This document shows, piece after piece, positions 21,476 through 55,967 of a stretch of DNA of 64,000 bases. Below the pieces are notes generated by a model, which was not told the DNA's origin, did not search any database, and worked only from the letters and a program-made list of their open reading frames with translations. Position 1 is the first letter of the stretch. Every line of letters begins with the position of its first letter. Position numbers and translations under genes: made by a program. Source of the DNA: Austropuccinia psidii (taxonomy: Eukaryota > Basidiomycota > Pucciniomycetes > Pucciniales > Sphaerophragmiaceae); NCBI GenBank assembly GCA_023105745.1, contig JALGQZ010000004.1, positions 61,435,112-61,499,111 of the forward strand, in the 5' to 3' direction.

Positions 21476-21521
21476 CACCAGGGCGAATCTCGCGTCAATC
21501 GTCGGCGATTGACTTCACGTC
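21476..21521 (+). repeat. Left terminal inverted repeat of D
   Basis: Begins CACCAGGGCGAATCT and ends GACTTCACGTC. Against the reverse complement of 55922-55967 it differs at positions 5, 16, 18 and 31. It contains an internal inverted repeat, GTCAATCG then TCGG then CGATTGAC. Confidence 0.93.
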
Positions 21522-21837
21522 GCACCGCGGTCAGTATAAAATCTTGCTTCAGTCGCGTTATGTCACTTTATAGTCACTGGATTTAGTGGGTCACGTCACG
21601 TCAGCGTCAAGACAACGTCAATCGTCACATGTGTCACATGAGAATGTCACTCAAAGCCCAAACCCATTTCAACACTATGCGCAACGTTCGTGTAATTTCA
21701 CCTCATTGGCTTCCGCCTCCCCAACGCTTAGCATGCTCACGCACCCGCACCGCCCTCCATCCAGATGAGACTCCGACACTGCCCGCCCCTCTCCGTCCTC
21801 ACCACTCCTTACGCTTTCACACCCCCGCCCCTACCAT
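21522..21837. promoter_or_regulatory. Left subterminal region of D with CGTCA/GTCAC repeats
   Basis: Non-coding. Between 21560 and 21655 the words GTCAC, CGTCA and ACGTCA occur about ten times (for example GGGTCACGTCACGTCAGCG). CACTA transposases bind short repeated subterminal motifs, so these are candidate binding sites; that assignment is inference. Confidence 0.55.
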
Positions 21838-22205
21838 CCTTACGCTTGTGTAGTACCCTCCCGACATGCCTCCGACAACGCTTACCATCCTTACGCTCAT
21901 GTAGTGCCCTCCCGACATGCCCCCGACAACGCTTACTCTCCCTCCCGACATTCTCCCGACACTGCTTACCATCCTTACGCTCATGTAGTGCCCTCCCGAC
22001 ATGCCCCCGACAACGCTTACCCTCCCTCCCGACATTCTCCCGACACTGCTTACCATCCTTACGCTCATGTAGTGCCCTCCCGACATGCCTCCGACAACAG
22101 TTACCCTCCCTCCCAACATTTTCCCGACACTGCTTACCATCCTTACGCTCATGTCGTGCCCTCCCGACATGCCTCCGACAACAGTTACCCTCCTCACGCT
22201 TCCGT
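21838..22205. repeat. 84-bp GC-rich minisatellite near the left end of D
   Basis: The phrase TTACGCTCATGTAGTGCCC recurs at 21891, 21975, 22059 and 22143, an exact 84-bp period, preceded by a shortened 51-bp unit at 21840. Units are made of CCCGACATGCC, CCGACAACG and CCCGACACTGC blocks. All long ORFs here, in several frames, are by-products of the repeat. Confidence 0.92.
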
Positions 22206-22746
22206 ATTACATCCATAGTGTACAGTACGGTGGCTTGTTGGCATACACGATGAACGCAATTGCCGAAATATGCTGAGTGGCCTTCTCTGCCAACAGGACC
22301 TAAGGGGATATTGGTCAGTATATTCACCATGTTGTGGTTAGGGTTTAAATCATGAGACTCACAAATTAAAACCTAATAAGTGGACTATTTAAGACAAGAA
22401 TTGTGTCTCCTGTTTCGCCGACAAAACCATTTTATTTCATATCAATCAAATGAACACTTTGCTTAGTCCTTACCTCATGAGCGTTGAATAGTTCAAAAGT
22501 TGACTTTAGTAGGTTTCTCACTAGTCAACTTTATTCAATGTCTCACAGGGAAGTGATTTCATTTGCATGATATGAAGTAATTTGCAAAACATTGCCTCCT
22601 TCAATTTCCCGACAAATCGCATTTTGCAAATGCGATTATTTTACTTGCACCTTTTTTCTTGAATTTGGATCTTTTTATTCAAAAATTTTCAAACAAGTTA
22701 TCAATCAACTCGTCACCATCTATTTGCATAATAAACTACCTCCGCT
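22206..22746. other. Intergenic stretch upstream of the 677-aa gene
   Basis: No coding sequence seen. A degenerate copy of the palindrome family may lie at 22217-22250 (TACGGTGGC ... GGCATACAC). The 3' half probably holds the promoter of the gene starting at 22747. Confidence 0.4.
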
Positions 22747-24983
22747 ATGGCCCGAACCCCGGGAAACTCAACTGAATTGAATGAACGACCAACTTCAGCC
22801 CCAGAGAGTGGAAGTGAAATCTCTGATATCGCCAGTAGTCGTGAATTAGGCATTGAAGTAGAGAGCCAGTCACATGAAGATAATCAAGATCCACCAGTTC
22901 TTCCAGAATGTGAGTATGCATCCATCTTGAATATTTCAAATCTCTCAAAACCTGATATTGTGTCATAGCCTTTATTTCAGGTCAACCTCCAAGCGCTCAG
23001 AAACCGAATTTTAAAACTTATGAGAAGGAAAAGACTGTTGAACCTTGTTCACCGACAGAAGATGATGGGCAAGATGATGTAATTTTCAGTGGGGAGGTGG
23101 AAATTATATCCAAGGAACAATTTGTCTCCAACATTGCTCAAACAATCCCAAGGCTCGAAAAAATTCAAAATGATAGTAAAATTCCTGATTATGTGCGTCA
23201 AAAGATTGCTGAAGCCATGAGCCTGCTCAAAATGGATTTGAACCGTAAGTCCATTAATAATTCAAAACAAAATTGATAAAAATAGCTGCTTACAATATAT
23301 GGGCAGGTGTGGAGGTGAGAGAATCTCTACCTGAAGGATCTCGAGTCGTAATTGGATTTCCAGGCAAAGGATTAGGAAAAAGACCAAATATACATGCGAC
23401 CAAAAAAACAAAGAAAAAACGCCGTACCTTTGAAGCCGCAAACGATTCGGGCGATCAAGGTCATGAAATTATCAATGTTGAAGGGGACCATATTGATAAT
23501 CAACCTCCGCATACTGAAACCCCCCCAATACTCAATGAAACAATCCATGATGAAGCTCCACATACTGAAAGCCCCCCGATACCCAATGAAACAATGCATG
23601 ATGCAACCCCTGCCGCCTCTCCTTGGAATATTCAAGCCTTTCAAGAAAGGGAAACAATTAAACATGATACAATGGGACGAGATATGACTGATATAATTCC
23701 CAACGCTGAGCCCGAAGTGTCATCCGCTGCGAATTTTCAAGGAATATTCTTATCCCGCATGGAAGAGTTTGCAGGCATTTTGAATTATCATTCCAATATT
23801 TCTCAACAATCATGGAAAAGGGGGCTTGATAATATCAATAGGATTTACAAAAATAGATGGGACAATTTACCAACAAAGGATGCTCATACATTCCTTCCTG
23901 TTGGTATTAAGGTGATCAGTAACCGAGAGCTTAAAATGTCGGCCTGGCTGGAGGACCTTGAGATGGCAGGTGAGTTTTATCTTTGTGCATGATACATGAT
24001 TATTGGCTGTTGACTGGTGATATAAATTGCAATTTACAGGGTTAGATTTTTTTAAGCCAACCGAAACAGAAGCGTTTTTTGATCACAACATTTGGAATAT
24101 CAAATTGATGAAGGAATCAGCTAAACCTCCAGATAATCTCCCAAAATCAGAACACTCCTTCTTCAAAATGGTTCAGAGCCTTCTTTACCCCGCCAATCCA
24201 GTTAAACATTTTTGGGCAAATGTTATGTTTGAATCCATTAGTTTAGTCTCATACGATGTGATTGCACCCAAACCATATGTTGCACCAACATCAAATTCGA
24301 CCGATCCTCTTGGACTCGAACGGGGAGCAGTTGAATACCTTGCCTCCTGCTTGAGTAAATTGAAGCAACGTGCAACCCAACTCAGCATTGAAGGTGGCGG
24401 GGCTGACAATGAGATATCCACAAAGCCGCACAAGAACCTGGAGGATCTAATGGATACAGTTATCCATTTGATGATTGCGTACAACATGGTACGTGCACAT
24501 ACAAAGGTCGAAGTTAATGGCATCAAAGGCAAACTCACAAACTCAAAAAAAAATGAGGCCATCAAAGATCTTTTGACATGTCACAAGAATCTCGGAATAA
24601 ATCAAATTTTCTATGGTATATTAGCGGCATTCTGTGCGGTGGGGGTTCGTGGTTTGATGGTATGCTCAGATGACTGGAGAACAAGCTCAGTTAAAGGGGC
24701 TTTATCACTAATTGACATTTCCGCAAAACTTTCAGAAAGTAAAAATCTAGTGGAGCCAGTATGGCTACGTACTAATAAGTATATATGTGATTTACTGAAT
24801 AAAAGTTTCTTCTCATCAGAGTCTTTTAACCCCGCTGTACCTCTTAGATTTGAATTTGCACGATGCTTAGTATTAGACTTTGGTGATGCCTGGGTGGCAA
24901 AACGCGGGCTTGGTTCAAGTGATGAGGTCACCTTGACGGTACCCAGGTCAGCTAAACTCACAACCAGGATTGACCCGTTTTAG
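22747..24983 (+). CDS. Unknown 677-aa cargo protein of D
   Basis: Four exons by consensus splice sites: 22747-22909, 22981-23244, 23307-23969, 24040-24983 (introns 71, 62 and 70 nt; GTGAGT, GTAAGT, GTGAGT donors and CAG acceptors). The frame is continuous over 678 codons. The protein starts MARTPGNSTELNE, is acidic and Ser/Pro-rich for about 140 residues, has a basic patch (TKKTKKKRR) that could be a nuclear localisation signal, then a compact C-terminal half with conserved-looking VRGLMVCSDDWRTSSVKGA and RFEFARCLVLDFGDAW. I do not recognise a domain. It resembles a multi-copy A. psidii protein from memory. The intact frame in a decayed neighbourhood suggests it is, or recently was, under selection. 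Confidence 0.8.
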
Positions 24984-25100: not shown

Positions 25101-25126
25101 TTGTACGGCGGCATGCCTCTGTACAT
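25101..25126. repeat. Palindrome family member (degenerate)
   Basis: Halves TTGTACGGCGGCA and TGCCTCTGTACAT, 10 of 13 pairs complementary. It lies between the 677-aa gene and the Tet-like gene. Confidence 0.65.
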
Positions 25127-25560: not shown

Positions 25561-26877
25561 ATGCCATTCACAAAAAAAGGAAAAGAACGTAAAAGGGAAC
25601 TCGCGAGAAAGCGTCGGGCTGAGGAAGGAAAGTGTGAGTTACTCGCTTAATCTCAGTGTATATATGCTTCCACATTTATGTGGCACCCTCATTGGGCCCC
25701 ACGGAAGAACATTGGCTTTAGTCGGTTCAGATTGTGCCAATGTCATGTGGGCTCCAACAGGGAAGTCAAAGGATGTGTGCCGAAGAAAGCTCCTTGGCAG
25801 TATCTGATATCTTGTGTGCTTCAACACATAGTGATCCCTCAACCACTCGGGAATAGTAGCAGATCCCAAAAGACAAATGAGCGCAAAACGACCCGAATGA
25901 ATAGGTTGTTTTCCTCCTCTTGTCCAACAGCACAAATATCAATGCCAGTATCAGCAAATATCACCCCAAGTGAAATTCGGAGGGTTGTGGATGTCAATCA
26001 GATCAAACGCATTCACTTTGGGCGTGTGGCAATTTTCTCTTCAACCGGATTACTCATTGCCCTTGTCGAATTCCGACCATTCACAACAATGAGTGAAGTC
26101 GAGGTCAATCAATGGGATGAATTATCACAATTCTTATTTCGCGAAAAGAGGTTCACTGACCCTATTGCAACAAATGGAGCATTACTGGAGGGATTTATGT
26201 TCGCGATTGGGTGGCGCAAATGCACCACGAAGAATGAACAATTTGCTCTGTATGGAAGTGCTGGCAAAATTGAAAATGCAAAAGATGAATGGCGGGACCG
26301 AGGTGCCAATCTTAGCTCGGTGGGTCGCATTCTAGGTCAATCCTTACGATATGTTGGGGATAATTTGTTTGAGAAGATTCAAAATTTCTACAATTCATTG
26401 GGGGTTCCGTCTTTTGATCAAGTCAACTATGAAGGCAATATTCCGGCAAATCAGGGTGCATTCGAGTTTGCTTCCGCACTCACTTTCACCATGAATGGAT
26501 TCAAAAATTCACCTCATCTTGATAAGGATGCATCGCTGTATGCTTCGGGATGGTGGTTTCAAGCTGATAAGCGGACTGGCCAAATTCAAAGAGATGCGTC
26601 AAAGCGGTGTACAGGTGGAAAATTGATTTTCCCAAATGAACATTTTTGGATTGATCTATCCGCATGTCATGGGCTCATTCAGGTAGTGTGGGCCAGTAGT
26701 ACATTTGTTCATTATACTGATCCAGCACAGGACAACGAAAGCACGACACTAGTGGGTATGTCCGCACAATGCTCAAGCAGGTTAGCAAAAACAATGCGTC
26801 AAAAAAGCCATGGCTATTATGAGATTGCCGAGAGAGCGGGCTATCAAATCAGGGATGGTAATACAATCTCATGCTGA
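25561..26877 (+). CDS. Tet/JBP-like 2-oxoglutarate Fe(II) oxygenase
   Basis: Two exons, 25561-25633 and 25931-26877 (intron 297 nt), giving 339 aa. It starts MPFTKKGKERKRELARKRR, a strongly basic, nuclear-type N-terminus. The body resembles the Tet-like 2OG-Fe(II) oxygenases expanded in rust fungi: iron-binding HxD at H220-L-D222 (SPHLDKDASLYASGWWF), a GGKLIFP strand, then a distal His at 285 (STFVHYTDP) and SAQCSSRLA, where the 2OG-binding Arg is expected. TET/JBP enzymes oxidise methylcytosine or thymine in DNA. In fungi such genes are known to travel with transposons (the KDZ class of Iyer and colleagues). The frame is intact and metal ligands are present. The exon 1 junction is the less certain part, because this intron is longer than the others. 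The substrate is unknown. Confidence 0.78.
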
Positions 26878-27013: not shown

Positions 27014-27039
27014 ATGTACGGTGGCATGCCATCGTACAT
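27014..27039. repeat. Palindrome family member (best copy)
   Basis: Halves ATGTACGGTGGCA and TGCCATCGTACAT; 12 of 13 base pairs match. It lies 140 bp after the stop of the Tet-like gene. Confidence 0.85.
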
Positions 27040-27059: not shown

Positions 27060-27545
27060 TGTCCAGGATGCCAATGCTTCACACGCGAATCCTTATGCTT
27101 GTGCAGGTTCTGAGAATGCTAAAAGTTCCTTACGCCTATGCGGGGTGCCAGCGCTACACACGCCAATCCTTGGGCCTGTGCAGGCTCCCGAAAATTTACA
27201 CGCCAATGCTTACGCCTTTACAGGCTTTCGACGATTCACACGCCAATTATTACGCTTGTGAAGCTTCCCCACAATGCTGAAATTTTCTTGGCCTGTGCAG
27301 GATCCCAAGAATTCACACGCCAATTCTCACGCCTGTGCAGGCTCCCAACAATTCACACGCCAATCCTTATGCTTGTGAAGGGTCCCAAAAGTGCTAAAAT
27401 TCCTTACGCCTGTACAGGCTTCCGACGATTCACACGCCAATCCTTACGCTTGGGAAGGTTGCCAACAATGCTGACAAATTCTTACGCCTGTGCAGGCTCC
27501 CGAAAATTCACACGCCAATCCTTACGCTTGTGAAGGTTCCAGACA
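27060..27545. repeat. Interspersed minisatellite with about 40-bp units
   Basis: Repeated phrase CACACGCCAATCCTTACGC followed by CTGTGCAGGCTCCCGA or TTGTGAAGGTTCC, at least nine partial units. The repeat explains the overlapping ORFs here. It is not CRISPR-like: units are contiguous and diverged. Confidence 0.85.
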
Positions 27546-27970
27546 ATTTAAACAATTCAATACATGAGTAAGATTAATAGCGTGTGACCATAGGAAAGGC
27601 CATGTTTCACAAATCTGGACTGGATTGCTCACATACGGGAACCTGCCGCTTTTTTACAGTTAAGAATGGGGATGGCTCTAAACCATGGAAGAAGAAAATA
27701 TAGGAGAGGATAAGGGCAACTATTGGCGCATTTTGAGAAAAAGAGGTTCACGAAAACAAATACTCACTCAAACTCTTGGTGGGGCACTTACAAAAATAAT
27801 TCTCACGCAATCAGGGTTTTTCTCTAAGGTGGAAATAAATAATTTTTTACGTGAACAAAGAATGTAATAGAAATTGAACATAATAATAATAGAATACAAA
27901 TAATTTGTTTTGAAAGAAAGTAATACAAATTATAAAAAGTGGAAATAATGAGATTATTTTTTTGGAATTT
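27546..27970. other. AT-rich spacer
   Basis: Apart from a 60-codon ATG frame at 27685 without recognisable features, nothing is seen. It is probably the 3' flank of the minus-strand Zn-cluster gene. Confidence 0.4.
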
Positions 27971-29348
27971 TTATTTTTCTAGGAATTTGGAGACTATCCC
28001 GGTTATGTCCTCCTTTGGATAAGCCTCCAGTGCCTGGGCAAGGAGGCGGTTGAGTTCGTCCCGGAAGTCCCGGTGCATCTCATTTCGATGAGTTGCATCC
28101 ACGAAAGGAATCATGTGGAGCAAGCGACGATGCTCCAACAAGATTCGGTTGATCGAATCGTGGACGATTGCTCGAGGAATCATTAGGGTCGGTCGCAGGT
28201 CGGTGAATTCCTGGCGAGCGTCATCGTGGGAATGAGACGAGCTTGGCACCGGGGGGGAGGAGGCGTTGGGGTTCTCGGGGGCACTGGAAGGGATCTCTGG
28301 GGAGGGAACCGGGGTTGGAGTGGAGGGGGGGGGAATGGAAGGGGAAGGTGGGCGAGTCGGGTAAGAAGAAGGGGGATGGGGAACTGGGGATCCCACGGGC
28401 GTATCGTCGATGATGATTATTGAGCGAGGAGTGGCGGGACGATCTGGAGATGGTTGAAAAAATGGTGAGGAAAAGTTGAGAAGAGTGAAGAAGGAGAAGT
28501 GGTGACTTACCAAAAGGTTCCTCCGTGGATTGCGTAGGAGCCACCTCAGGTTCTGGCTCACGAGTCGTATCGTCCTCAGGTTGTTGGGACGCTGGACTTG
28601 GGCCAGGAATAGGTGGCTCTTCGGTTCGGGAGGGTTCTAAAAAAGGAGGAAGAGTCAGTTCACTCGACTCAAAAGTGAAAGTGAAAATGAAATGAAACTT
28701 TGGCTGCTTACCGCGGAATAATTCCTCAGACCGTCGGGTGCCACTCGGGCCTGGAGTGGGTTGCCGGGGGGTTTGCTCGCGAGGCAAACTAGCAACGGGA
28801 GAGTCTTGTCGGGGGGGATTCGGGGGGTTTTGTTCTATGAGAAATGGAAAAAAGTCAATATTATTGCATGAAGATAAATGAGATAAGGAGGAGAAATAAA
28901 ACTTACTTTGGCGTTTGAATCCCATCGGTGACAAGACATGGTGACGATCAGCCCAAGCTCAAATGTCCTCTCGCCATCGCCATCCTTCATCGGCCGGATA
29001 ATCACTTCGCTCCGGTCGAGGAGTGAAGTGACCATCGGATGGTGGCCTAGGAGGGGGAGTGGACAAATCGATACTGGAGGGGACAGGGCTAATCGTCCGG
29101 AATCGTTCCCGTTGGCCTGTTTGGGGGCCCGGCGTCCATTCACGCTCGGAAATGGTTCCATCATCGTCGACCACAAAGGAGTCCTCGCGAGGGCGTCTTG
29201 GGCGAGAACTCCTCTGGCCTCGTGGTCGGAAGGGGCGGACAACGAACGAACATTTCTTATGTGCTTGTCGGCAAGCATCACAAGCGTCGTTCGTCGTCGA
29301 GGAACGAATGCAGGGGATACCCCGCTTGGTGCATAAAGTGCACGACAT
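27971..29348 (-). pseudogene. Zn2Cys6-type cluster protein with proline-rich body, one nonsense codon
   Basis: Four minus-strand exons: 29348-28907, 28834-28712, 28636-28511, 28443-27971 (introns 72, 75 and 67 nt), total 388 codons. The N-terminus has C3-x2-C6-x6-C13-x9-C23-x2-C26-x6-C33, matching the fungal Zn(II)2Cys6 binuclear DNA-binding consensus (CTLCTKRGIPC, then CDACRQAHKKC). A basic RPRGQRSSRPRRPR stretch, a long Pro/Ser-rich region and a conserved-looking C-terminus (RNEMHRDFRDELNRLLAQAL) follow. One TGA at 28959-28961 interrupts exon 1 between REDI and AWADRHHVLS. The frame is clean on both sides, so this could be a single CGA-to-TGA change or a readthrough/recoded codon. Fungal Zn2Cys6 proteins are usually transcription factors. 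Role here unknown. Confidence 0.75.
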
Positions 29349-29902: not shown

Positions 29903-31682
29903 TGTGGTATGCCATACCATATCAGCTTAATAAAATTTTTTGAGGGGAGTGAAAAGTAGCAGTACCCCTATGGGTAGCTTCTGTTGGAAACAAAAGAAAA
30001 GGATATTTGTCCCAGTTGGTAAGGTGATGCCTTGTGTCAAGGAAACTGGCCATGTCATTGGTTCAAGCCACATTGAAGACATAAAAAAAAAAAAAAAAAA
30101 AAAATGTCAAAATTTTTGGAAAATCCTTTTAAAGTTTGGAAAATACCTGAAACCTAACCCTAAAATAAATTAGGTTTCAACCCACAAATTGGCCTAAAAA
30201 AAAGTTCTAAATTCAAGACAGCAGAAGGAGGATACATAAACAGATTACATAAGCAGGAAGGAGTTAAGAAAGTATTAGTAATCAGATTACTTGATTAGTA
30301 ATACTTAGGGAGTTAAAGGATGCAGGTACCATGGAGTATTAGTCAGCAAGTCTAAGGATTAGTAATAAAGTTCAAATAAGCACCAGCAAAAACACCTCAA
30401 ATTAGTAAGCAACCCAACAAATGACATCATCAAGCAAACAAATGATGCAATGATCTACATAAATGACATCATTTAGGTGGGACCACCAGAAAAAAATTTT
30501 CCCAGCCAAAAGAAACTGAAAAATTCTAAGTCCCTCTTTTTGAACACCTCCCATGGAGAGCCCAAAAATTATAAATAGAGGGCCTCTCCCCCCAAATTTT
30601 TCCTCTTTCCCTCATGTCTTTTATCCCCCCAAAAGTGGAAAGTGGATTTAAATTCATCCCTGACTATCAGGTTAACTAGTCTACAAATATATAATTCTAT
30701 TATATAAAGGATAAAAAGGCCTTATATAATAGTCTTATCAAAAAAATAAAAAAAAAAGTCTTATAAAAAAAAAAGAAGAGCTTTATAATATAATTTTATT
30801 ATATAAAGGATAAAAAGGCCTTATATAATAGTCTTATAAAAAAAGAAAAATTCTTAAAATAAAGAAGCAGTCTTATAAAAAAAAGTATTATAAAAAAGAA
30901 CAACTTTATAATATAATTTGATTACATAAAGGATAAAAAGGCTTTACATAATAGTCTTATAAGCTTAAATTAAATAAAATAGTATTTTAAAAAAAAAAGA
31001 TTTTACCTTATTATAAGCAATCAAAGCTTTGAAGAAGGAAAAGAAGGGTCACTTAGTTATTTTATTAAGAAATTATTATTATTTCATTTCAAAAAGTCAT
31101 ATTTTGGTTACTACAAGGACATTTTATTAATTATAAAAGAAAATACCTATTATAGGAATACAGTAGTGCTATTCTTATTAAAAAGAAAGAATTATTATCA
31201 AATTAAATTATTAAAGAGTGGCTATTATTTAGTCTGGTCATATCAGAATTTCATTTCATTCAAAATAATAAATCATATAAAAAAAGTGTTTGATTGTTTG
31301 TTCAGTATTATTATTAGTCTAGTGTCTCCATATTATATTGAGTTATTGTTGTAGTAGTATTTTGTGTGATTTGTGTTAGTTTTTTTCTTTTGGTTAATTA
31401 AATAGTGTTATATTTAAAAGGTTAAATAAATATTTTGAGATCAAGCAAAGTCTGATTGAGTCTGTTGAATACACTTTTCTGAATTAGCCACCATCAATAA
31501 ATAAATTGATTGTGAACTCAAGTTAAGATAATTCAGCATTTTTCAGGAAGGGCAGTCTAGATTATTCTAGCACACGAGCAGAGCAAGGGTTACAAGCTTG
31601 AACAGCAATTCAAAACTGTTTTCTTGTAATTTCCCCTTCCAGGTACTGCCTCATTTTATCCCACACAAGAGGAGTTCCCACA
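29903..31682 (+). repeat. 5' LTR of element E
   Basis: 1,780 bp. Starts TGTGGTATGCCATACC (short palindrome at the tip) and ends GAGTTCCCACA. It contains a TATA box at 30570, poly-A tracts and three roughly 100-bp tandem units around 30690-30960, each with AAGGATAAAAAGG between arms related to TATTATATAA. Confidence 0.94.
30570..30579 (+). promoter_or_regulatory. TATA box of the E LTR
   Basis: TATAAATAGA inside the 5' LTR; the same box is at 42430 in the 3' LTR. A pyrimidine-rich stretch follows within about 40 bp, so transcription probably starts near 30600. Position is inference from the motif. Confidence 0.65.
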
Positions 31683-31684
31683 TC

Positions 31685-31702
31685 TGGTGTCCCAACAGTG
31701 GC
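31685..31702 (+). promoter_or_regulatory. Primer-binding site of E
   Basis: TGGTGTCCCAACAGTGGC begins two bases after the LTR. The leading TGG is complementary to a tRNA 3' CCA end. The tRNA species cannot be named without a tRNA set. Confidence 0.7.
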
Positions 31703-32045
31703 TGTCTGATAGGAATATCATCAGATTCAATTCAGCTTGATATCAAAATATATATATTTATTAAACCTGGAATCATATAATCATCTAAATAAACCATTGT
31801 CATCATCATCAAAATCTCATTCATCATCATCATCATCTGAATCTTATCATTACAAATTACTACTAAAATCAAAATCACCAGGACAGATATCACAAGAAAG
31901 CTTGAGTAATCTAATATCAACACCAAATACAAGAAGAAAAGAAGAAGATAGGCTAAAAGAATTCTTCTTTAACCTAATCAAAGAGTATAAAGAAAGAAAA
32001 CAGGAAGAAGCAAAATTTGAAGGCAAAACATACAAAGTAGAAAAA

Positions 32046-39722: not shown

Positions 39723-39753
<31 letters not shown>

Positions 39754-41190: not shown

Positions 41191-41316
41191 TAAATTGTAC
41201 CAAATTATTTTTTATTTATTTTTTATGGAAAATTATGGTGGAAATAGTCAATAAGAAGGGATTTATTAAATGGAGAGGGAAATTGCCATCAAGATGGAAG
41301 AATGGAACTGGAACAG

Positions 41317-41362
<46 letters not shown>

Positions 41363-41744
41363 CATAAAAAAAAAAATAAAAAATAAAAAAAATAAAACAA
41401 GGGGTGGTACTTATTTCTTCTCATCACTCCTTATGATGTTAAGTTTTGGGGGAGTAGTGGGAAATAATCAGTTATTCATTATTTTCATTAGCATTTATCT
41501 AATTTTATATTATATAAAACAAGCAGAATTAGAAAATCAGACATTAAATCAGTTAAAAAAGCAGGGAGATTCAAAATCAATATAAAGAACCATCAACAGA
41601 CAATCTCAACATAATTAAGGTGTGAAAATAAAATATGGCATACTTGCCATAATCAATCAAGATCAACATAAAAGATTTGGAAGAAGAAACAGGGAAAATT
41701 TCATTAAGCTTCAGTTGGATAATGAATGCTGGGGACAGCATTAA

Positions 41745-41757
41745 ATGGAGAGGGGGA
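41745..41757 (+). promoter_or_regulatory. Polypurine tract of E
   Basis: ATGGAGAGGGGGA ends one base before the 3' LTR starts at 41758, the expected place for plus-strand DNA priming. Confidence 0.85.
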
Positions 41758-45137: not shown

Positions 45138-45163
45138 ATGTTTGGTGGCACGCCACCGAACAT
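45138..45163. repeat. Palindrome family member
   Basis: Halves ATGTTTGGTGGCA and CGCCACCGAACAT; 11 of 13 pairs. A sister copy lies about 110 bp downstream. Confidence 0.75.
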
Positions 45164-45273: not shown

Positions 45274-45299
45274 ATGTTTGCTGTCACACCAGCGAACAT
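45274..45299. repeat. Palindrome family member
   Basis: Halves ATGTTTGCTGTCA and CACCAGCGAACAT; 10 of 13 pairs, extended by C/G at the outer ends. Confidence 0.7.
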
Positions 45300-46100: not shown

Positions 46101-48099
46101 ATGCCCAAAGAATATGACTGTAATACTCATAGTCAATGTCAACTTTTTACTCCATCATTTCCCGCTTCAAACTCAACGCAAGCTTCATATCCTGCTGTTT
46201 CATCATTGATTTCCAAGCAAAAACTGATACAATTACCCAGTGGATCAGACCTCCCCATGATGACCCCGCCCCATGCCATTATTCAAACCCCCCTCCTCCC
46301 TCATCAAAAGACCGGACTAGCTTTTCTCTGGGATCGAGAAATCCCCAATGGCCAATCAGCCCGTAACCTTTGGGCCACCTCACCCCCAGGATCCACTTTC
46401 AATTCCAGGCACATCATTACAAACAGGGTCGTTAGCTCATTTGAATCCCTTTCGACCAATACCCCTCTTGGGGGACTGCTCGCGGATGATATGGGATTAG
46501 GTAAAGCCATTCAGGCCATTGCTCTAATTGGTACCTCCAAAGAGCGGATGATTGCAAACCCCCATCGCTCCATGCCCACCATGATCATCTGCCCCCCTCG
46601 CTTAATTACCAACTGGCAATCAGAAATATCCAAGCATGCTCAGGCTGGAGCGCTGCATTCCAAAATCTACCATGGTCCCACTCGTCACTCATTATCCAAA
46701 GACGACATCTTAAAATATGATATCATCATCACTTCTTACAATACTATCACCCAAGAATTTAAGCAAACCAATCCCTCTACATCATTCATTTTTCAAATCA
46801 ATTGGCATCGTATAATCTTGGATGAAGCACAGTGAGTGGCTGAGCTTAAATGATTCAAATTACCTTTTATATCCAATAACCCTTTCCCCCTCTTATAGCT
46901 ATATTCGCTCTCAATACACTGCCACTCACCGTGCCATTAATAGCCTCCTTTCATCCCGTCGAATATGTTTAACGGGCACACCTATTCACAACACCATTTA
47001 TGACCTTTTGGGCATAATATCATTCATCACTCAACCCCAGAGCGCCGATCAAGATAACTGGTCACCATTCATCCTGAGTAGTCTTTCCAAAGGTTGCAAT
47101 GATATCTTGCATTTGGCATTGCGGCATTTAAGTTTGCGCCGCACAAAAACCACACATCTCGAATCCCTCCCCACTATTAGCCATCATTATGAGCTGCTCC
47201 CACTCAACCAGACCATGCAGCAAGAATATTCCATATTATATGAAGAATTCCTATCATCCAAAAGCAAAGGACCAGGAGAATTTTTCAGAAATATTAATAA
47301 GCTGCAAATATGTTGTAACCATCACATCATGCTTAACACAATTGCGGAGGCGGATTTGGAAGACCCCGAGGGCAGGAGCACTCAGGATAAATCGCCAACA
47401 ATCACACAAACTCTTGTGGATGTCGAAACATGCATGATGAGTAGTAAAATTGCACACCTCCTACAAAGCTTAATGAAGAACAAACAAACAAGGTGTGGTC
47501 CAACCAAATCGGTGGTTTACTCCCAATGGACCCAATTTCTAGATTTGTGCGTTAATTCTAATATGCATCCATTACCAATTGAATCCATCTGACTTTTTCA
47601 TATTGTAGAATTGGTATTGCCCTTGCCCATCACTCTATCCTTTCAGCACGAATTGATGGAACAATTACAGCACGAGCACAGGAGAAGGCACTGGAGAATT
47701 TCTTCAATAATCCTGAATGTGAAGTACTGATTGCATCCATTGCCGCAGCTGGAACTGGCCTCAATATAACTTGTGCTAATACGGTCTATTTAATGGTGAG
47801 GGGACCCCCAAAATTCTGCCCTGATTTGCGGCCCCTGACATCCACATTTCCAGGAGCCCAATTGGAACCCAGCCATTGAGGCTCAGGCTGTTGATCGACT
47901 CCATCGTATTGGCCAACAACAACCTGTAAAGGTCATCCACTATATAACTCCTCATTCAGTTGAGGTCAACATGCGGAAGGTACCTTTCAAGATCATCTTT
48001 GACCCTAATTGTATTGCTATTCTAAAGCCCTTCCTTATGGAAATGCCATTTTCCAAACACCAATAGGTCCAAGAAAAGAAAAAATCATTAACTGCGTGA
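46101..48099 (+). CDS. SNF2-family ATPase/helicase-like protein
   Basis: Five exons: 46101-46831, 46899-47546, 47609-47795, 47854-47979, 48067-48099 (introns 67, 62, 58 and 87 nt). All joins keep frame, giving 574 aa. SNF2 motifs in order: LLPHQKTGLAFLW; motif I LADDMGLGKAIQAIAL (Lys135; the usual Thr after it is Ala136); motif II DEAH at 241-244, restored across intron 1; motif III LTGTPIHNTIYDLL; motif IV SVVYSQWTQFLDL; motifs V-VI IAAAGTGLNIT and AQAVDRLHRIGQQ. The order resembles the RAD5/RAD16/HLTF branch, but no RING finger is seen. SNF2 proteins use ATP to move along DNA and remodel chromatin. The last exon ends early (KKKSLTA-stop) and the Ala136 change may weaken Mg-ATP binding, so activity is uncertain. 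Confidence 0.85.
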
Positions 48100-48401: not shown

Positions 48402-50463
48402 TTATTGCAGAGCATCACCATTCGGCCTAATAACTGGCATGTCAAGTATCTTGAGGGCGCTAGTTTGCATCTTACTACAGCCTTTGAGCCAATCTTGATC
48501 AAATACCTGAAATGATAAGCCTTCTGGAATATCACCATCATCTGTCGATTGTAATTCTGGCAATCTATCAATAGTTTTTTTACCCTTTTTTTTAATGTGA
48601 TTACAAAACTCTATGTCTCGATCCATTTTTAATACCAATTCATTAAATAACTGGGAGCGCCAGCGTAATCCCACTTTGCGGTAAACTTGACGGCCATTTT
48701 CCAGTACCTCCTCAGTATCTGAACATACTCGAGGGTCATTGAATTGTGATGCTAGAATGGGAAATTTAGCCGTATCACACCATTCACGACGGCGCTCACA
48801 GGTATGCACATAATGAAGTAGATCATGATCAGTCTTTTCTCACAATGAAGAAGAGAGACATTAACTAACCCTTTGACGAATCTTTGCGAGTTTTTGATTC
48901 TCCTTCTTTTTAACCAAATACTCGGCATCCTTTTGAATAGACTTCCATTCTCTTTTCAAATAAGTGAAATATCGCTCCATTAAAGCCGCTACGACCCCAT
49001 AGTTATTATGATCCTTGTTCCAACAGTAATGATGATACTCGGTGCTGACCAGTGCAAGACGGAATGTACGGTAAAACACCATAGACATCAGCTCATTGAA
49101 CGGATGTTGCCATGAGCTCTCCCAGTCCCAAGTGAATCGCTTTAGTCCTAGCTTGTGGAGCTCATTTTCGCAGTAGCTTTGGAAACCCTGAGACTGAACC
49201 TGTGTTGATGGCTCATTGAAAACATCCTCGGGGATATAACCGAGATGACCAGCCACTTGAATTGCAATCTCACGCTCTTCTGTGCTTGGTGGTGCTGGTA
49301 GTGAGGAAAAATCCTTATCCCTAACTTTGAGTAGGAACAGGCAATGTGCGTGTACTGCTGATCTCATTCCATGGACATTCTCTGGAAGTTCTGCTTTCAG
49401 CCATTTTTGTTGCTCCTTCTGGCTTGCACGTTTCGCCACATTGTGAGCTTTACGAGCCTGGTTCCTTTGCTGTCTGACCTCGGATTGTTCAAGCATACTC
49501 TGGGCAAGGGGCATTTGAGGATGGGTGAACTCATTATTTGACTGAGTGCCATGATCATGCGCCGTGAAATTGTCACTCCTTGCTTCATCATTTGTTTCGA
49601 TTTGAGTCGGAGACATGTTCTCATCCTCATCATCCACCATTTTTTCTCTTGATGAACTGGCATGAGCTGTTCTTGGTTTGGAGGAATATGGATGATGACG
49701 TCCAGTGACTTTCTCTTTATGGACCAGAGGTGAAGATGCATACAGTTCATCACCTGCCATGCACATCATCAGTTAACACATCAAAAAATGAATGAAGACT
49801 GGTCATACTCACAATCTTCAATTGGCTCCTGAGATCGGACTGACTTGCCTTTAGGTGCCATATCTAACCCATGAAACAAACATATCAAATTGTGAAAAAG
49901 GTTATACACCGAAATTAAAATGACTTACTTTGATGAAGCGTCAATCCTGGATTTCCCTCCGACAGACCACTCCAAGTTACATTCTCCAATGGTCTTTTTC
50001 GTCGTCCCCCATCCACGTGCCTTTCATGAACCACATGAACCTGAGATCCTGATGGAATATTGAGGGTTGGCTGTTTACTTTGGCCAAAGGGATCCTGGGA
50101 TGCGACTGGATTCCGACCGGGATTAAGGAGGAACTCACATGGATATTTTGATTGGGGATTAGCGTGTGATGAGATTTGAGGTGTGCCTTCCGGCCCCTCA
50201 GACACATGCATTTGTGTATTAGTGGGATTCGGGGGAATTGGAGTGACGGAAATATTTGGGATCGACCAAGTGCTTGAAGTTGGAGCCTTTGGATTGCCCA
50301 CATCAATGTTAAGACCTGATACATTCATTGAGGATGCGATAGGGGTTGTGAGAGGAATGTTGGGGCTCAATGGTGACTGTGTTTGAACATATTCTATGCT
50401 AGATTCACTATTTGAGTCATGAACAGAACCTGAACGGGATTTATGTGACTTGAAAGATGACAT
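48402..50463 (-). CDS. Unknown charged cargo protein of D
   Basis: Minus-strand exons: 50463-49929, 49863-49813, 49753-48870, then a last exon from about 48830 or 48800 to the stop at 48402. The first two introns (65 and 59 nt) have good GTAAGT/GTGAGT donors. The last junction is uncertain: the simplest in-frame join gives only a 36-nt intron. Ser/Pro-rich N-terminal 180 residues, a GGRRKRP basic patch, then a Gln/Lys-rich helical stretch (QQRNQARKAHNVAKRASQKE) and a conserved-looking block with Trp/His/Tyr (RFTWDWESSWQHPFNELMSMVFY, given here in two parts: RFTWDWESSW, QHPFNELMSMVFY) and ALMERYFTYLKREWKSIQK. No domain recognised. It faces away from the transposase, possibly sharing the 0.96-kb promoter region between them. 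Confidence 0.72.
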
Positions 50464-51423
50464 AAGGGCCGAAAAAGTACAGTAATATTTTTAACTAGAT
50501 AAAACACCTAAGTATTATGATAAAATAGAGTGATATGAGATGAAATCTTTTCAAATTTAGAATAGAGAAATTCTATGAATAGTTGGAACTAAGTGTTGCG
50601 TGAAAGTCCAATAAGCCTCTTTTTAGGAGAATCCTCCCTGCCTCCTCTTGAGCTCCTCCGCTTCTATCGGAAACCACCTGGCACGGCCTACCACCATATA
50701 ATGTAATATCTCCTTGATCTCAAAGGGGACCCATCATCCATAAGTAATCGTATTTGGTAACATTTCTGCCTCCCCATTGTCACATTTTGTGAATTATCCA
50801 AACTGCCAATATATGCATTGAAATCCACAGCATTGTACATCTGTAAAGGGGTATATTCATGAAGGATTTACCCACAAAAGAGACATCACCTTTACAAGAA
50901 AGGCAAAACAATCCAAATCACACTCCAACCGATTAAAAGCCTGCTGCACTCAAACCAAATACCAAGACTTTAGGTACACTCCAACCTTTTATGTAATAGA
51001 GTTATATCGTTATGTCTGTAATAAGGTTCAAGCCATGTACGATGGCGTGCCAGCGTACATGGTTTGAATGTCAATCCCCTCAAATCAATGTTGACACATC
51101 CCTATTGAAACACCCCTCAAGGGTCAAAACCGCAGTATCGCCATGTGTAAATAAAATAGTATATGTATGAGCATTGAGCAGCATGGCATTTTACCCAATT
51201 AAACTCCTAACCAATTCCGCCATCCAGATGAGACATGTTACACTCCATCAGCTGCAGCTCACGCACCATTACAAATGGGATAAAATTCTCAGATGGCTCA
51301 AATCATCTCCCCCTTCATAAATACTCACTCAATTTTTTTGCCAATTAATAACACTCCTAAACACTTTCACATCAGCCATAGATATTTATACACAAACCAA
51401 CCGTACTCCCAATTCCTGCAACA
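50464..51423. promoter_or_regulatory. Divergent promoter region between the unknown gene and the transposase
   Basis: 960 bp with no gene. Contains the palindrome at 51033-51062. A 5' leader with ATAAATAC near 51320 precedes the transposase ATG. Promoter role is inferred from the head-to-head gene order. Confidence 0.45.
51033..51062. repeat. Palindrome family member (30 bp)
   Basis: Halves CCATGTACGATGGCG and TGCCAGCGTACATGG; 13 of 15 pairs. It lies between two divergent genes. Confidence 0.8.
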
Positions 51424-54400
51424 ATGACAACCCGCCGCTATTCCTCAATGCGTATATGCATGTGTCAACACTGCTCAACTCAAACACACTCTTCCCCTGA
51501 GGGTGATAGGCCTGGAGTTGCCTTCACACCTTTCCAATATAAACAGCACATTAAAAAGCTCAAATCAACCATTGCACCCAAATCTCTTCCAAACATCCCT
51601 ACTTCTGCATCAGGATCTGAGTGCCCACAACTTCTATTGGATCAAATCTTCCCAGCTGATTATTCACGTTTGACCCAAAGCACTTTCCCAACTCCAGCGG
51701 GTCTCAATTCAACTGCACAGAAACCATATAGTGGCAGTCAAACCCTTCCCCCACAAGACCTAGGAATGATAATATCTGCCATTCTATCATTAAGGTATGA
51801 TATACCCCGCACGGCTTCACGCATTCTGCACCCCTCCCTAAACCTGCTGATCAAGTCCAGCATCTCAAGCTCCGGTGGTCTCCCCATTCCTGCATTCCAT
51901 ATACCTCAAGATCTGAGTACCATATTTGAACATCTCCAATTGGAGCCAGTGATTCAAAACTATATATGTTGTCCTCAATGTTTCTCTCTTAATGGCCTTA
52001 CTGAATCAGTCACAACTGACCAACCCCACTGTCAACGCCATAATGACCCAAATGATCATGATCCCCCTTGCACACAATCATTAGGCAAATTCATCTATTC
52101 ATCTGAACCCCACACCCAAAACACCACCAACATGAAGCAAAAATTTATACCAACAAAACATTTCATTTATCAACCATTCAAAAATTGGCTTGCCAGATTT
52201 CTCCAGCAGGCTGGAATTATGGAAATTCTGCATCAACATCAACAATCCCAAACTCCCGAAGATTCCCCAAAATGTGACGTCTGGGATGGATTGGTCTGGA
52301 GACGCTTCACTGGCACTAGAAATATCCATGACCCCCCATTCATGTCCATTCCTGGTGCATTGGCCTTCTCCATTTATGTGGACTGGTTTAATGCACATGG
52401 AAAGTCCACCCAGTTGGCCAGCATTGGACCTATCATGCTTATTTGTCTTAATCTCCCCCCAAGTGAAAGATTGAAGCCAGAGAATGTCTATGTTGCAGGA
52501 ATAATCCCTGGTCCAAAGGAGCCAACTTCCCTTCAATTGAATTATTTATTAATGCCACTCATCAAGGAGCTCAAAGAGCTATGGCAAGGTTACCATTTTT
52601 CACCCACCTCAACAGGTCCATCAGGATCCTTTATCCGTGTTGCCATCCTCACAGCCATTGCGGATGTGGTTGCCATGCGCAAGCTTACTGGATTTATTTC
52701 CCATTCAGGCAACCACTTTTGTAATTTTTGCACCATTCACAAAGCTCAAATTGAAGAAATTGGTCCTCAATTTCACTACACACGCTCATATCAAAATCAT
52801 AAATCAACCATTGCCAAATGGCTTCGGGCAACCCCGCAACAAAGACAAGCAATTTTCTCTGAGTATGGAGTGCGATATTCAATTTTAGAAGACCTTCCGT
52901 ATTGGGATGCCACCAGAATGGTTAATCTTGACATAATGCATAACTTAATACTTGGAATTTTGAAGGATCATGCAACTTTCAAATTGTGCATTCCAGAGGC
53001 GAAATCAAAAATTTACTTCAGGTCCCGCAGGAAATCCAATGACACCAACAGTTCAGACTCAGATTCCAAGACCTCCAACAGCTCTCTTGATAAAATCACA
53101 TTGAGAGAGGCCCGCTCCCTGAGAAGAGACGCAGCAAAAATAATAAATGAGCCACTCCCCACTACTTCCACCCGAAAAAACTACTTCCCAATGCCCACCC
53201 CTAACACAGAACATCCATCTAGTGGTTCTGCGGAGATTCCTTCATTTGATGCCGATTACATCCCCACTTCTGAAATCCCCTCTGAATTGGATATCACTGC
53301 ACTGAGTGATCACCAGATCAAGGGTGAGGCTCTGGAGCATCTCCGACAAATCATATCTGAGACAATAATTCCCTCATCATGGACAAGAGTACCTCGCAAC
53401 ATGGGTTCCCCCTCTCATGGTAGCTTAAAAGCCGCTGAATGGGCTCTCTTATATAAGGTCTATATTCCATTTTTAATTCTCAGTCAACAGATGTCATCAG
53501 ATGTACACCAATCCGCCAACATTCAAAGGCAAATGGGTCAGTCAGAAGAACTTGGAAATGAACTAACCAAGAATACATTCAATTTGATTAGTGCTATCAA
53601 CATTGCCACAAGTTGGACTGTTTCAATAGGAGATGCGACTGAATTTGCTGAACATTGGAAAAAATTCCGCCTTTCCAATCAACTCCTGTTCCCAAAACAG
53701 AAAAGTAAACCAAATCATCATTTTGCTGACCATATTCCCGAACTCTTCCAACGTTGGGGCCCAGCACAAGCCTCAGCCACATGGGGTTATGAGCGCTTGA
53801 TTGGAGTATTTGCAAAAATGCCAACAAATAAAAAAATATGTACGTCAATTAATAAGATCAATATATTCACATTGATTAAACACCTGAACTGAATAAGATT
53901 AACTTCTTGCAACTCTAAATAGATGATATAGATAAAACCTTACTTCAACATATCTGTCGATGTTCCAACCTTTCCGTTCTCCTGAAATCCCCATCCATGC
54001 CATGTGAAATAAAACAGCTTTTCGAATCACAGCCACCTGCCCTGTTCAATGACCATAAATATAACAAACCATCCCGCCATGACCAAGAAAATTATGATTG
54101 CCTGGTTGAGTACTTACAGAATTTTCATGCAACAAGGGAAATAGTTGATTGGATCAGCTTAGACACTACCGTGCAATCCACAAGTCATCTCACTTCAAGG
54201 ATTGTCTCACCTTGGTATTTTCCAGTTTCAAACATTAATATTGGGAACAATATATTTCCAACTGAATCCAAAAATGTCAGCAACAGTGTGATATGTTTTC
54301 TGAGGGGCAACTCACGACGCTTTGGTATTATTAATAGCATTTTTAAAGTCTCTGAGCCATCTAGCATACTGAAGAATAACTTTCTGATCTTAAAAACTTT

Positions 54401-54584
54401 GAAGATTGATGTGAATTTCTTACCAGATTGGCCGCATCTGAATATTTATAAAGCTGTTGGTTTTGATGATGGACACTTGATTATATCTGAAGAAGAAATA
54501 GAAGGTAACTGTGGATTGTATGATAACAAAGCTCTGTCATGTGGACTGCTTGTAATGATAAAGCCGTTATTTCATGAAATTTAG
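51424..54584 (+). CDS. Tnp2-domain transposase of D (CACTA/CMC, Plavaka-like)
   Basis: Two exons, 51424-53839 and 53923-54584 (intron 83 nt, GTACGT...TAG), 1025 aa. The N-terminal CQHC with a following His may be a zinc finger. The Tnp2-type core starts near W287 (VWDGLVWRRFTG). YVDWFNAHG (Asp320) and the downstream IADVVAMRKLTGFISHSGN (Asp414), followed by CNFC, match the usual D-P-A...G...C-x-x-C pattern. LDIMHNLILGILKDH (Asp503) matches the conserved D-x-M-H-N motif. An acidic/Ser-rich insert (540-610) precedes a helical C-terminus. The enzyme would cut at the TIRs. Length fits the family and the frame is intact, so D may still move. It lies nearest the right end of D. Confidence 0.9.
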
Positions 54585-54819: not shown

Positions 54820-55205
54820 TGTTGGAAGGGGAAGCGGCCCTTGCACACACGCCAATGCACACGCAAGCGCACCCGCACCCACACACGCGGTATTGTGCGG
54901 CGGGCTCTACCAGTGTCACCTGCAAAACGACAATCCTGCTCAGGCGGAGTCCTTTCATGGACGACCTGGTGAAGTCAAACCCCCCGCCAAAATTTCTAAC
55001 GGTGCCATCATCATGCAGGAAGGGGAAGCGACCCTTGCGCACCCGCACCCGCACGTGCCAATGCACACGCAAGCGCACCCGCACCCGCACACGCCAATGC
55101 ACACGCAAGCGCACCCGCACCTGCACACGCACACGCGGTATTGTGCGGCGGGCCCTACCAGTGTCACCTGCAAAACGACAATCCCGCTCAGGCGGAGTCC
55201 TTTTA
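54820..55205. repeat. GC-rich minisatellite and direct repeats, right subterminal region of D
   Basis: Short units ACACGCCAATGCACACGC and AAGCGCACCCGCACC repeat around 54845-54885 and 55030-55135. A 100-bp block starting near 54889 (TATTGTGCGGCGGGC) is repeated at 55138. ORFs here in several frames are repeat by-products. Confidence 0.85.
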
Positions 55206-55533
55206 TGGATGACCTGGTGAAGTCAAACCCCCCGCCTACATCAAGACTGGCTGAAGGACCTCTTTGATGTGTGTGTTTGCAAACAGGCGGGTCTTGGGTA
55301 ATTTTTACCAACCATTGGACGGTTGCGGGATGATCAGGTGGTGAGGAATCTGAGTTGAAGGCACAGCGGAACCAATATTGGTGGATGTCACAGGATTTGG
55401 TGTAAGACAAGAGTAGGACGTGTGCTCGACGTTTGCTTGATTTTTGCTTGACGTGAGCTTGACTTTTATCCTGCTTGACGTTTGCTTGACGTGAAGTCAA
55501 TCGCCGACAATTGACACGAGATTCGCCCTGGTG
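55206..55533. repeat. Right-end direct repeat of D, inner copy, with an internal TIR
   Basis: 328-bp block from TGGATGACCTGGTGAAG to GCCCTGGTG, repeated as 55639-55967. Its last 46 bases (55488-55533) are a full TIR copy that matches the left TIR at 44 of 46 positions, better than the outermost end does (42 of 46). It includes repeated TTGACGTGA/GCTTGACG motifs. Confidence 0.9.
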
Positions 55534-55638
55534 AAACCCACCCCCGCACACGCCAATGCACAAGCAAACCCACCCGCACACGCCAATGCACACGCAAACC
55601 CACCCGCACACGCAAAACCACCCGCACATGCACACTTC
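55534..55638. repeat. Minisatellite between the two right-end copies
   Basis: CACCCGCACACGCCAATGCA-type units, the same kind as at 54845-55135. Confidence 0.8.
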
Positions 55639-55967
55639 ATGGATGACCTGGTGAAGTCAAACCCCCCGCCTACATCAAGACTGGCTGAAGGACATCTTTG
55701 ATGTCTGTGTGTGCAAACAGGCGGGTCTGGTGTAATTTTTACGAATCATCGGACGGTTGTGGGATGATCAGGTGGTGCGGAATCTGAGTTGAAGGCACAG
55801 GGGAACCAATATTATTGGATGTCACAGGATTTGGTGTAAGACCAGAGTGTGACGTGTGCTCAACGTTCGCTTGATTTTTGCTTGACGTGAGCTCGACTTT
55901 TATCCTGCTTGATGTTTGCTTGACGTGAAGTCAATCCCCGACGATTGACACAAGATTCGCCCCGGTG
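55639..55967. repeat. Right-end direct repeat of D, outer copy
   Basis: 329-bp block homologous to 55206-55533. It ends in the outer TIR at 55922-55967, which abuts the TSD AAT, so this copy was the one used in the last transposition. Confidence 0.9.
55922..55967 (-). repeat. Right terminal inverted repeat of D
   Basis: Read on the minus strand it begins CACCGGGGCGAATCT and ends GACTTCACGTC, pairing with 21476-21521. Confidence 0.93.

What the first reader, a model, noticed from the sequence alone, without database searches (positions are those of the whole stretch)
21476..55967. A 34.5-kb CACTA-like transposon carrying a Tet-like oxygenase, an SNF2 ATPase and a Zn2Cys6-type protein
Boundaries are visible: 46-bp TIRs (42/46), CACC ends, a 3-bp AAT duplication, and a gag frame interrupted and resumed across 34 kb. 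The Tnp2 transposase inside fits those ends. The other cargo points to DNA or chromatin modification. Fungal TET/JBP genes are known to travel with KDZ transposons; a CMC/Plavaka vehicle with this gene set would be a different and, to my knowledge, undescribed arrangement. A possible logic is that the element edits the methylation or chromatin of itself or its targets.
Basis: partly seen in the sequence, partly recalled or inferred. Interest (0 to 1): 0.95.

Follow-up and report, generated by a model that had tools for sequence, protein, structure and literature searches.

The report
Rust-fungus transposon carrying chromatin enzymes
A 21-kb jumping gene, present in many copies in a giant rust-fungus genome, carries its own DNA-demethylase-like and chromatin-remodeller-like enzymes, and both show signs of being preserved by selection, which suggests that it fights the host's silencing of it; the apparent 34.5 kb comes from a second mobile element that landed inside this copy.

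Summary
21476-55967 is a CACTA/EnSpm transposon (CACC..GGTG, 3-bp TSD AAT, frame-preserving empty site), but 29903-43543 is a nested 13.6-kb LTR retroelement, absent from all 19 other copies that show the junction. The element proper is about 20.85 kb; three complete copies are 20.87-21.08 kb. The genome is almost certainly Austropuccinia psidii. TET, the Zn2Cys6-type gene, SNF2 and Tnp2 recur in one order and strand (65 of 65 pairs among lists of best hits, 10 of them the window's own). TET inside EnSpm or Plavaka is already published (Kojima 2025); SNF2 as partner is absent from that main text and from my capped searches. Between two subfamilies SNF2 evolves under purifying selection as strong as the transposase (0.19 and 0.24 of neutral; spacer 1.35); TET and gene A show constraint too, TET on fewer sites. 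Copies carry heavy TCG-to-TTG change. New: a 26-bp CpG-bearing palindrome in the gene spacers, 3,604 places genome-wide, control 0. Best reading: an autonomous EnSpm with a selected anti-silencing set, a new variant of a known kind. The mechanism is inferred; no activity was measured.

The parts
21476..55967 (.). CACTA/EnSpm element (this copy, interrupted by an LTR retroelement)
   Evidence: ends, TSD, empty site
21473..21475 (.). target site duplication AAT, left
55968..55970 (.). target site duplication AAT, right
21476..21521 (+). left terminal inverted repeat
   Evidence: 17 of 17 copies (window included) that reach the left end start CACC
55922..55967 (-). right terminal inverted repeat (outer of two tandem right ends; inner at 55488-55533)
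   Evidence: three other complete copies end at the inner one's homologue
21832..22200 (+). left subterminal 84-bp tandem repeats (CTTACGC six times in the left end)
22747..24983 (+). gene A, 4 exons, 677 aa, unknown function
   Evidence: gene model; selection
25561..26877 (+). TET/JBP-like dioxygenase gene (start exon tentative; domain 25897-26877)
   Evidence: Pfam PF20515 1.5e-46; HxD nearly invariant; selection
27060..27553 (+). internal tandem repeat array, CTTACGC six times
27971..29348 (-). gene C, opens with a Zn2Cys6-type motif; later exons not settled
   Evidence: Zn_clus 17.6 bits, below cut-off; region at 40 of 40 scored places at 93% or more
29903..43543 (.). nested LTR retroelement, not part of the transposon
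   Evidence: LTRs 29903-31682 and 41758-43543; 4-bp TSD GCGT/GCAT; empty in the 19 other copies that show the junction
46101..48099 (+). SNF2-family ATPase gene, 5 exons, 574 aa, Rad5-like core without RING or HIRAN found
   Evidence: selection
48861..50463 (-). gene E, unknown function, multi-exon, exon ends not all settled
   Evidence: selection
51424..54584 (+). Tnp2 transposase gene (two open stretches, 51424-53892 and 53919-54584)
   Evidence: PF02992 3.6e-15; 40 of 40 scored places at 99% or more
25101..25126 (.). 26-bp palindrome (4 mismatches in this copy), between gene A and TET
27014..27039 (.). 26-bp palindrome after TET
45138..45163 (.). 26-bp palindrome upstream of SNF2
45274..45299 (.). 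26-bp palindrome upstream of SNF2, second
51035..51060 (.). 26-bp palindrome between the divergent gene E and Tnp2

Best explanation
This is one copy of a young, multi-copy, autonomous CACTA/EnSpm DNA transposon of about 21 kb in Austropuccinia psidii. Shown: it moves as a unit with CACC..GGTG ends and 3-bp TSDs, with gene A, TET, the Zn2Cys6-type gene, SNF2, gene E and Tnp2 in that order in 4 of 4 complete copies (window included); SNF2 and gene E are constrained as strongly as the transposase, gene A and TET somewhat less and TET on fewer sites; copies show strong C-to-T change at TCG and CG relative to the majority base. Inferred: the host methylates the element and mutates it at CG sites; the element's TET oxidises 5-methylcytosine on its own DNA, and its SNF2 motor opens or clears its chromatin so that TET, transcription or transposase can reach it, which keeps at least some copies expressed. 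Also inferred: the 26-bp CpG-bearing palindromes in the gene spacers are shared control sites of its genes.
For: Unit and mobility. Three complete copies of 20,869, 20,887 and about 21,079 bp with TSDs ATT, TTT and CCT. Order: 65 of 65 pairs among five lists of 40 best hits lie on one strand, 54 within 1 kb of the expected spacing; 10 of the 65 are the window's own, which leaves 55 of 55 and 50; the 200 hits fall into 149 places. Selection, fixed differences between subfamilies (4 copies against 2) relative to neutral expectation: SNF2 0.19 (16 N, 25 S), Tnp2 0.24 (24, 32), gene E exon 0.24 (17, 24), spacer 1.35 (88, 22); 9 copies against 1: gene A 0.30 (14, 15), TET 0.33 (only 4, 4), spacer 1.28 (11, 2). 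Within the family, changes shared by two or more of 19 copies: TET 0.47 (29, 22), gene A 0.46 (31, 29), spacer 1.02 (11, 4); singletons 0.97, 0.87, 1.37. Mutation: C-to-T per cell TCG 0.1147, other CG 0.0313, non-CG 0.0028-0.0039 in 19 copies. Host: young TE families of A. psidii have higher 5mCpG ratios than old (PMC12774611, passages); CACTA is its second largest TE class. Palindrome.
Against: No activity, expression or methylation was measured here. TCG decay is heavy although the element carries TET, so any protection is incomplete or acts in trans. The window's SNF2 departs from the residue that RAD5 has in ATPase motif I, so this copy's SNF2 may be weak; the one other complete copy with an open SNF2 frame, c12, does not. 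Of 4 complete copies, the same two (c15a, c15b) have a frame-breaking deletion in SNF2 and stops in Tnp2. Gene C exon 1 shows no constraint (shared 14 N, 3 S; expected 11.8, 5.2). The TET test between subfamilies has 8 changes. The higher CpG content of the element may be youth alone.
Confidence: 0.66

Rival explanations
1. TET and SNF2 serve the act of transposition, not escape from silencing: the SNF2 motor strips or reloads protein at the ends or helps repair of excision gaps, as its likeness to the repair translocase Rad5 would allow, and TET opens target or donor sites.
For: Best solved relative is RAD5 (3e-59); names such as RAD5, helicase-like transcription factor and transcription termination factor 2 occur among the 120 relatives listed. 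Selection on SNF2 equals that on Tnp2.
Against: RING and HIRAN of Rad5 not found. The host genome shows the CG mutation and methylation that an anti-silencing role would answer.
Confidence: 0.22
2. TET writes a mark rather than erasing one: it makes a hydroxymethylated or otherwise modified base that labels or protects the element.
For: Kojima 2025 leaves other activities open for PU-type proteins. No solved relative of TET by sequence.
Against: No glycosyltransferase-like domain among the 10 frames scanned; the scan did not cover every exon.
Confidence: 0.1
3. The cargo are passengers caught by the transposon and carried without function.
For: Some copies carry broken cargo genes; gene C exon 1 shows no constraint.
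Against: Purifying selection on SNF2, TET, gene A and gene E against spacers.
Confidence: 0.04
4. The two ends belong to different insertions and the interval is a composite.
For: The right end is present twice in this copy and a retroelement lies inside.
Against: Matching 3-bp TSD, frame-preserving empty site, and three complete copies with the same content.
Confidence: 0.01

Closest known systems
TET+ EnSpm families of Puccinia striiformis and related EnSpm families of other rusts including A. psidii (Kojima 2025, PMC12730594)
   Same: EnSpm/CACTA, 3-bp TSD, CAC..GTG ends, transposase with likeness to Plavaka; HxD-type TET
   Different: SNF2 does not occur in its main text; SNF2 gene, gene order, selection and palindromes are from this work.
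PlavakaB TET+ families of Agaricus bisporus and Gymnopus confluens (Kojima 2025)
   Same: CMC-like transposon with a TET gene
   Different: CATCA..TGATG ends and PE-type (HxE) TET there; CACC..GGTG and HxD here
KDZ transposons with TET/JBP (Iyer et al. 2014, recalled; not held)
   Same: TET/JBP carried by a fungal DNA transposon, with extra proteins (recalled)
   Different: Different transposase class; Kojima gives 7-8 bp TSDs
VANDAL/VANC anti-silencing of Arabidopsis (search listing and start of abstract only)
   Same: A transposon that encodes its own protein against silencing; action on short non-coding sites of the element is recalled
   Different: VANC is not a dioxygenase or SNF2 protein (recalled); Vandal is a MuDR family
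Rad5-type SNF2 ATPases
   Same: SNF2 core and C-terminal helicase lobe, best match RAD5
   Different: No RING and no HIRAN found; 574 aa

Membership tests
CACTA/EnSpm (CMC) | termini CAC..GTG | tested here: met
   CACC..GGTG in the window and three complete copies; 17 of 17 left ends, window included
CACTA/EnSpm (CMC) | 3-bp TSD | tested here: met
   AAT, ATT, TTT, CCT in 4 of 4 copies with both ends read
CACTA/EnSpm (CMC) | Tnp2-type transposase | tested here: met
   Transposase_21 56.2 bits, cut-off 28.6
CACTA/EnSpm (CMC) | DDE with C(2)C and H(3-4)H | tested here: inconclusive
   Candidate D, CxxC, HxxxH and E found by eye in the translation; not aligned to a reference
Plavaka | Plavaka transposase profile | tested here: not met
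   25.3 bits, cut-off 26.3, profile positions 237-321 of 325 only
Plavaka | CATCA..TGATG (B) or TGT..ACA (A) ends | tested here: not met
   CACC..GGTG; Plavaka ends from Kojima
KDZ | 7-8 bp TSD | tested here: not met
   3-bp TSD in 4 of 4
TET/JBP dioxygenase, PU type | Tet-like 2OG profile | tested here: met
   PF20515 159.5 bits, cut-off 27
TET/JBP dioxygenase, PU type | HxD (not HxE) metal motif | tested here: met
   H207 and D209 90% or more in 22 sequences; a few rows differ; the distal H was not tested against a reference
TET/JBP dioxygenase, PU type | fold | tested here: inconclusive
   structure model failed, mean pLDDT 33.1
TET/JBP dioxygenase, PU type | activity on 5mC | not testable with these tools
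   needs biochemical data
SNF2 ATPase | SNF2 N-lobe and helicase C-lobe | tested here: met
   PF00176 176.3 bits, PF00271 59.8 bits
Rad5 subgroup | RING insert and HIRAN | tested here: not met
   neither listed at E up to 1
Fungal Zn2Cys6 factor | Zn_clus profile above cut-off | tested here: not met
   17.6 bits, cut-off 21; cysteine spacing fits by eye

The most novel reading that the evidence does not exclude
The element is a self-contained anti-silencing regulon. A protein it encodes (the Zn2Cys6-type protein, or gene A or E) binds the 26-bp palindromes in the spacers of its own genes. All carry CpGs in their arms, and the undecayed form of the SNF2-spacer site (and in some copies the site before TET) contains CGG-N10-CCG, the layout of a Zn2Cys6 site (recalled). 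Methylation and TCG decay of those CpGs, as seen at 45138 in this copy, would switch the element off, and the element's TET and SNF2, brought to the same sites, keep them clean and open. The transposon would carry operator, reader, eraser and remodeller together.
Probability: 0.2. Interest if true: 0.88.

Novelty: new variant of a known kind. Interest (0 to 1): 0.62.

Why it matters
Whether transposon-borne TET genes help the transposon is an open question in fungal epigenetics. Here is a young, multi-copy family in a sequenced genome with published 5mC data, in which a second, chromatin-moving enzyme travels with TET and both show selection, and in which short CpG-bearing palindromes give defined sites to look at. 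That makes the anti-silencing idea directly testable with existing long reads, and it bears on how rust genomes swelled to a gigabase.

Tried and rejected
A 34.5-kb single unit: rejected, LTR retroelement inside. Plavaka assignment: rejected on profile (narrowly) and ends. Composite of unrelated ends: rejected. Structure of TET: AlphaFold gave mean pLDDT 33.1 and was not used. Solved relatives of TET by sequence: none at E up to 1. Rfam: 0 matches. Neighbouring gene tags in A. psidii MF-1: tags seem to run in order of contig length, so pairs 5-8 tags apart on equal lengths may be coincidence; only O181_024241/024242 (TET, gene E) is worth noting, and I do not lean on it. Two MF-1 proteins (P0200, P0211) read from gene A-like into TET sequence in the alignment, which fits the neighbourhood but may be gene-model fusions. 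My first TET selection run used a wrong frame and was replaced; the first context count included a misaligned copy, L012, and was replaced, which dropped L012. L014 was never in those alignments. My notebook line that 19 of 20 carry the whole left half is loose: L012 and L014 lack most of it within the fetched stretch, apparently because other retroelements lie inside them. Gene-by-gene and TIR counts by pattern did not complete, so copy number rests on first-look candidates that were not scored (1,537 to 3,486) and on the palindrome count.
Full report
What was checked. The window lies in a genome of 1,015,390,075 bases in 84 contigs, at C4:61435112-61499111. No tool names it. Its SNF2, TET and gene E proteins find Austropuccinia psidii MF-1 proteins as nearest relatives (SNF2: 24 of the first 26 rows at 73-89%, two at 61-62%; TET: first ten rows 80-95%; gene E: 120 of 120 rows listed of 425 hits), and the size fits the published 1.02-Gb assembly (PMC8063080, passages). 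I take it as A. psidii, the myrtle rust.

Boundaries. The element starts with CACC at 21476 and ends with GGTG at 55967, flanked by AAT on both sides. The terminal repeats align. A related gypsy copy in the same window serves as empty site: its 9144-9920 and 9942-12383 match 20676-21452 and 55969-58407, and the flanks joined with one AAT align across the junction; by eye the lengths agree, so the gag frame is kept.

The nested element. Two direct repeats of about 1.78 kb at 29903-31682 and 41758-43543 (99.1% identical, TG..CA ends) bound a 13.6-kb LTR retroelement with a 1,681-residue open frame that has a retroviral-type protease. Of 20 left halves fetched from the best other transposase hits, 19 show 29902 joined to 43544 and the twentieth ends before it. 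The insertion made a 4-bp duplication, GCGT/GCAT; a solo LTR of the same family in L018 also sits in a 4-bp overlap. The transposon itself is therefore about 20.85 kb. Three complete copies measure 20,869, 20,887 and about 21,079 bp, each with its own 3-bp duplication (ATT, TTT, CCT); the four copies are 98.2-98.7% alike in pairs. One of them lies in a retroelement copy whose empty form is at 5760-7159 of this window, with the expected 3-bp overlap. In the window the right end is doubled in tandem.

Genes. Left to right in the uninterrupted element: gene A (677 aa, four exons, unknown), TET, a minus-strand gene that opens with two C-x2-C-x6-C motifs, SNF2 (574 aa, five exons; splicing creates the DEAH box), minus-strand gene E (unknown) and Tnp2. 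The SNF2 core is nearest to RAD5 among solved structures, with no RING or HIRAN listed.

A family, not one copy. Tnp2, TET and SNF2 each have 40 of 40 scored places at 98% or more and the gene C region 40 of 40 at 93% or more, the window included each time; the first looks gave 3,302, 3,044, 3,231 and 3,486 candidates, of which only 40 each were scored. Pairing these four lists and the list of 40 left ends gives 65 pairs within 60 kb, all on one strand, 54 within 1 kb of the spacing expected from the uninterrupted element. Ten pairs are the window's own; without them 55 of 55 are on one strand and 50 at the expected spacing. The 200 hits form 149 places. Most hits of one list have no partner in another, because each list holds only the best 40. 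Seventeen of 17 copies that reach the left end, window included, start CACC. A sister subfamily with one more C at the end has the same right half at 94.4-94.5% in 2 of 2 copies fetched, and gene A and TET in the one whose left part was fetched.

Selection. Using spacers as controls and the observed base changes as expectation, fixed differences between the subfamilies (four copies against two) give N/S relative to neutral of 0.19 for SNF2, 0.24 for Tnp2, 0.24 for a gene E exon and 1.35 for a spacer; one-sided binomial p 2.3e-7, 2.0e-7, 7.9e-6 and 0.92. Gene A gives 0.30 and TET 0.33, TET on 8 changes only, spacer 1.28 on 13. Within the family, changes shared by two or more of 19 copies are constrained in TET (0.47) and gene A (0.46) and not in a spacer (1.02, 15 changes), while singletons are near neutral. 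This is the pattern of genes that must work for the element to multiply and that decay after insertion. Gene C exon 1 shows no such constraint. Broken genes: in the left-half sample 5 of 19 copies have a stop or frame-shifting deletion in TET and 9 of 19 in gene A, insertions not counted; of four complete copies the same two have a frame-breaking SNF2 deletion and stops in Tnp2, while the two sister copies are open in both.

Mutation and methylation. Against the majority base of 19 copies over 22200-27000, C-to-T change is 0.1147 per TCG cell, 0.0313 per other CG cell and 0.0028-0.0039 elsewhere; 75 of 95 TCG sites have changed in at least one copy, 22 of them in one only, so shared changes are counted more than once. 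Per copy 6-22 of 95 TCG sites differ. Kojima cites TCG hypermutation in Pucciniomycotina. CpG observed/expected is 0.75 and 0.48 in the two halves of the transposon, 0.29 in the nested retroelement and 0.10 and 0.14 in the flanks, which age alone may explain. Published data say that younger TE families of A. psidii have higher 5mCpG ratios (PMC12774611, passages) and that CACTA follows Ty3 as its most abundant TE class.

Palindrome. In the spacers lie copies of a 26-bp palindrome, ideal form ATGTWCGSTGGCRYGCCASCGWACAT: four in the window with up to 3 mismatches to a looser form (shuffles 0.00), a fifth with 4, and the same five places in 3 of 3 complete copies; 3 of 3 expected places in each of two sister copies and one in a further sister stretch. 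The pattern was drawn from these sites, so the window count is not independent. Genome-wide it occurs 3,604 times with at most one mismatch, the pattern read backwards 0 times. Of 16 left-end hits on C1 inside the listed range, 9 have a listed perfect site at 10.4-10.8 kb, where the SNF2 spacer should be, and 7 do not; of nine other gene hits on C1, six have one at the expected place. Sites lie between gene A and TET, after TET, upstream of SNF2 (two) and between the divergent gene E and Tnp2; a weaker one lies before gene A. Constraint is not shown: non-CpG changes per cell are 0.0077, 0.0040 and 0.0000 in three sites against 0.0032-0.0154 in flanks. Control of the element's genes is the natural reading; which protein binds is open, and the missing constraint on gene C speaks against that candidate.

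How it most likely works. Tnp2 moves the unit by its ends; TET and SNF2 keep it, or part of its copies, from being silenced. The first step is as well supported as sequence allows; the second rests on domain identity, selection, and the host's methylation and mutation, with no biochemical proof. Kojima proposes the same role for TET (outline, parts 1-5 of 7 and figure legends read).

Novelty. TET in EnSpm and in Plavaka is in print (PMC12730594). SNF2 does not occur in that main text. Five full-text searches with SNF2 and transposon, fungal or silencing terms (listings only, 20 of 213, 3 of 3, 13 of 15, 20 of 47 and 1 of 1 papers shown) and one for CACTA, Austropuccinia and transposase (2 papers) showed no title or abstract start that describes it in a fungal transposon. 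Kojima's supplement and Iyer 2014 could not be read. I therefore call it a new variant of a known kind.

Noticed in passing
25101-25126, 27014-27039, 45138-45163, 45274-45299, 51035-51060: Repeated 26-bp CpG-bearing palindrome in the gene spacers of the element; 3,604 places genome-wide with at most 1 mismatch, control 0.
   Followed up: yes
29903-43543: Nested LTR retroelement with a 1,681-residue gag-protease frame; the longest frame overlapping 36760-41757 after it is 194 aa, so no evident reverse transcriptase; not searched by profile there.
   Followed up: partly
29349-29902 with 43548-44400: Nineteen GCTGAG/GCTCAG-type hexamers (either strand) in 1.4 kb upstream of gene C, contiguous in uninterrupted copies.
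   Followed up: no
55077-55967: Right end of the transposon duplicated in tandem in this copy (84% alike), with an inner and an outer terminal repeat; 3 of 3 other complete copies match the inner end.
   Followed up: partly
21832-22200 and 27060-27553: CTTACGC occurs six times in the left end and six times in an internal array and nowhere else in the window; a possible binding site of a TnpA-like protein.
   Followed up: no
L012, L014, L018: Other copies of the transposon also seem to carry retroelements inside (L012, L014) or a solo LTR (L018): with the window, 4 of 21 copies in the part examined.
   Followed up: partly
2482-2507: A perfect 26-bp palindrome AGGTCCTGTACAGCTGTACAGGACCT outside the element.
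   Followed up: no
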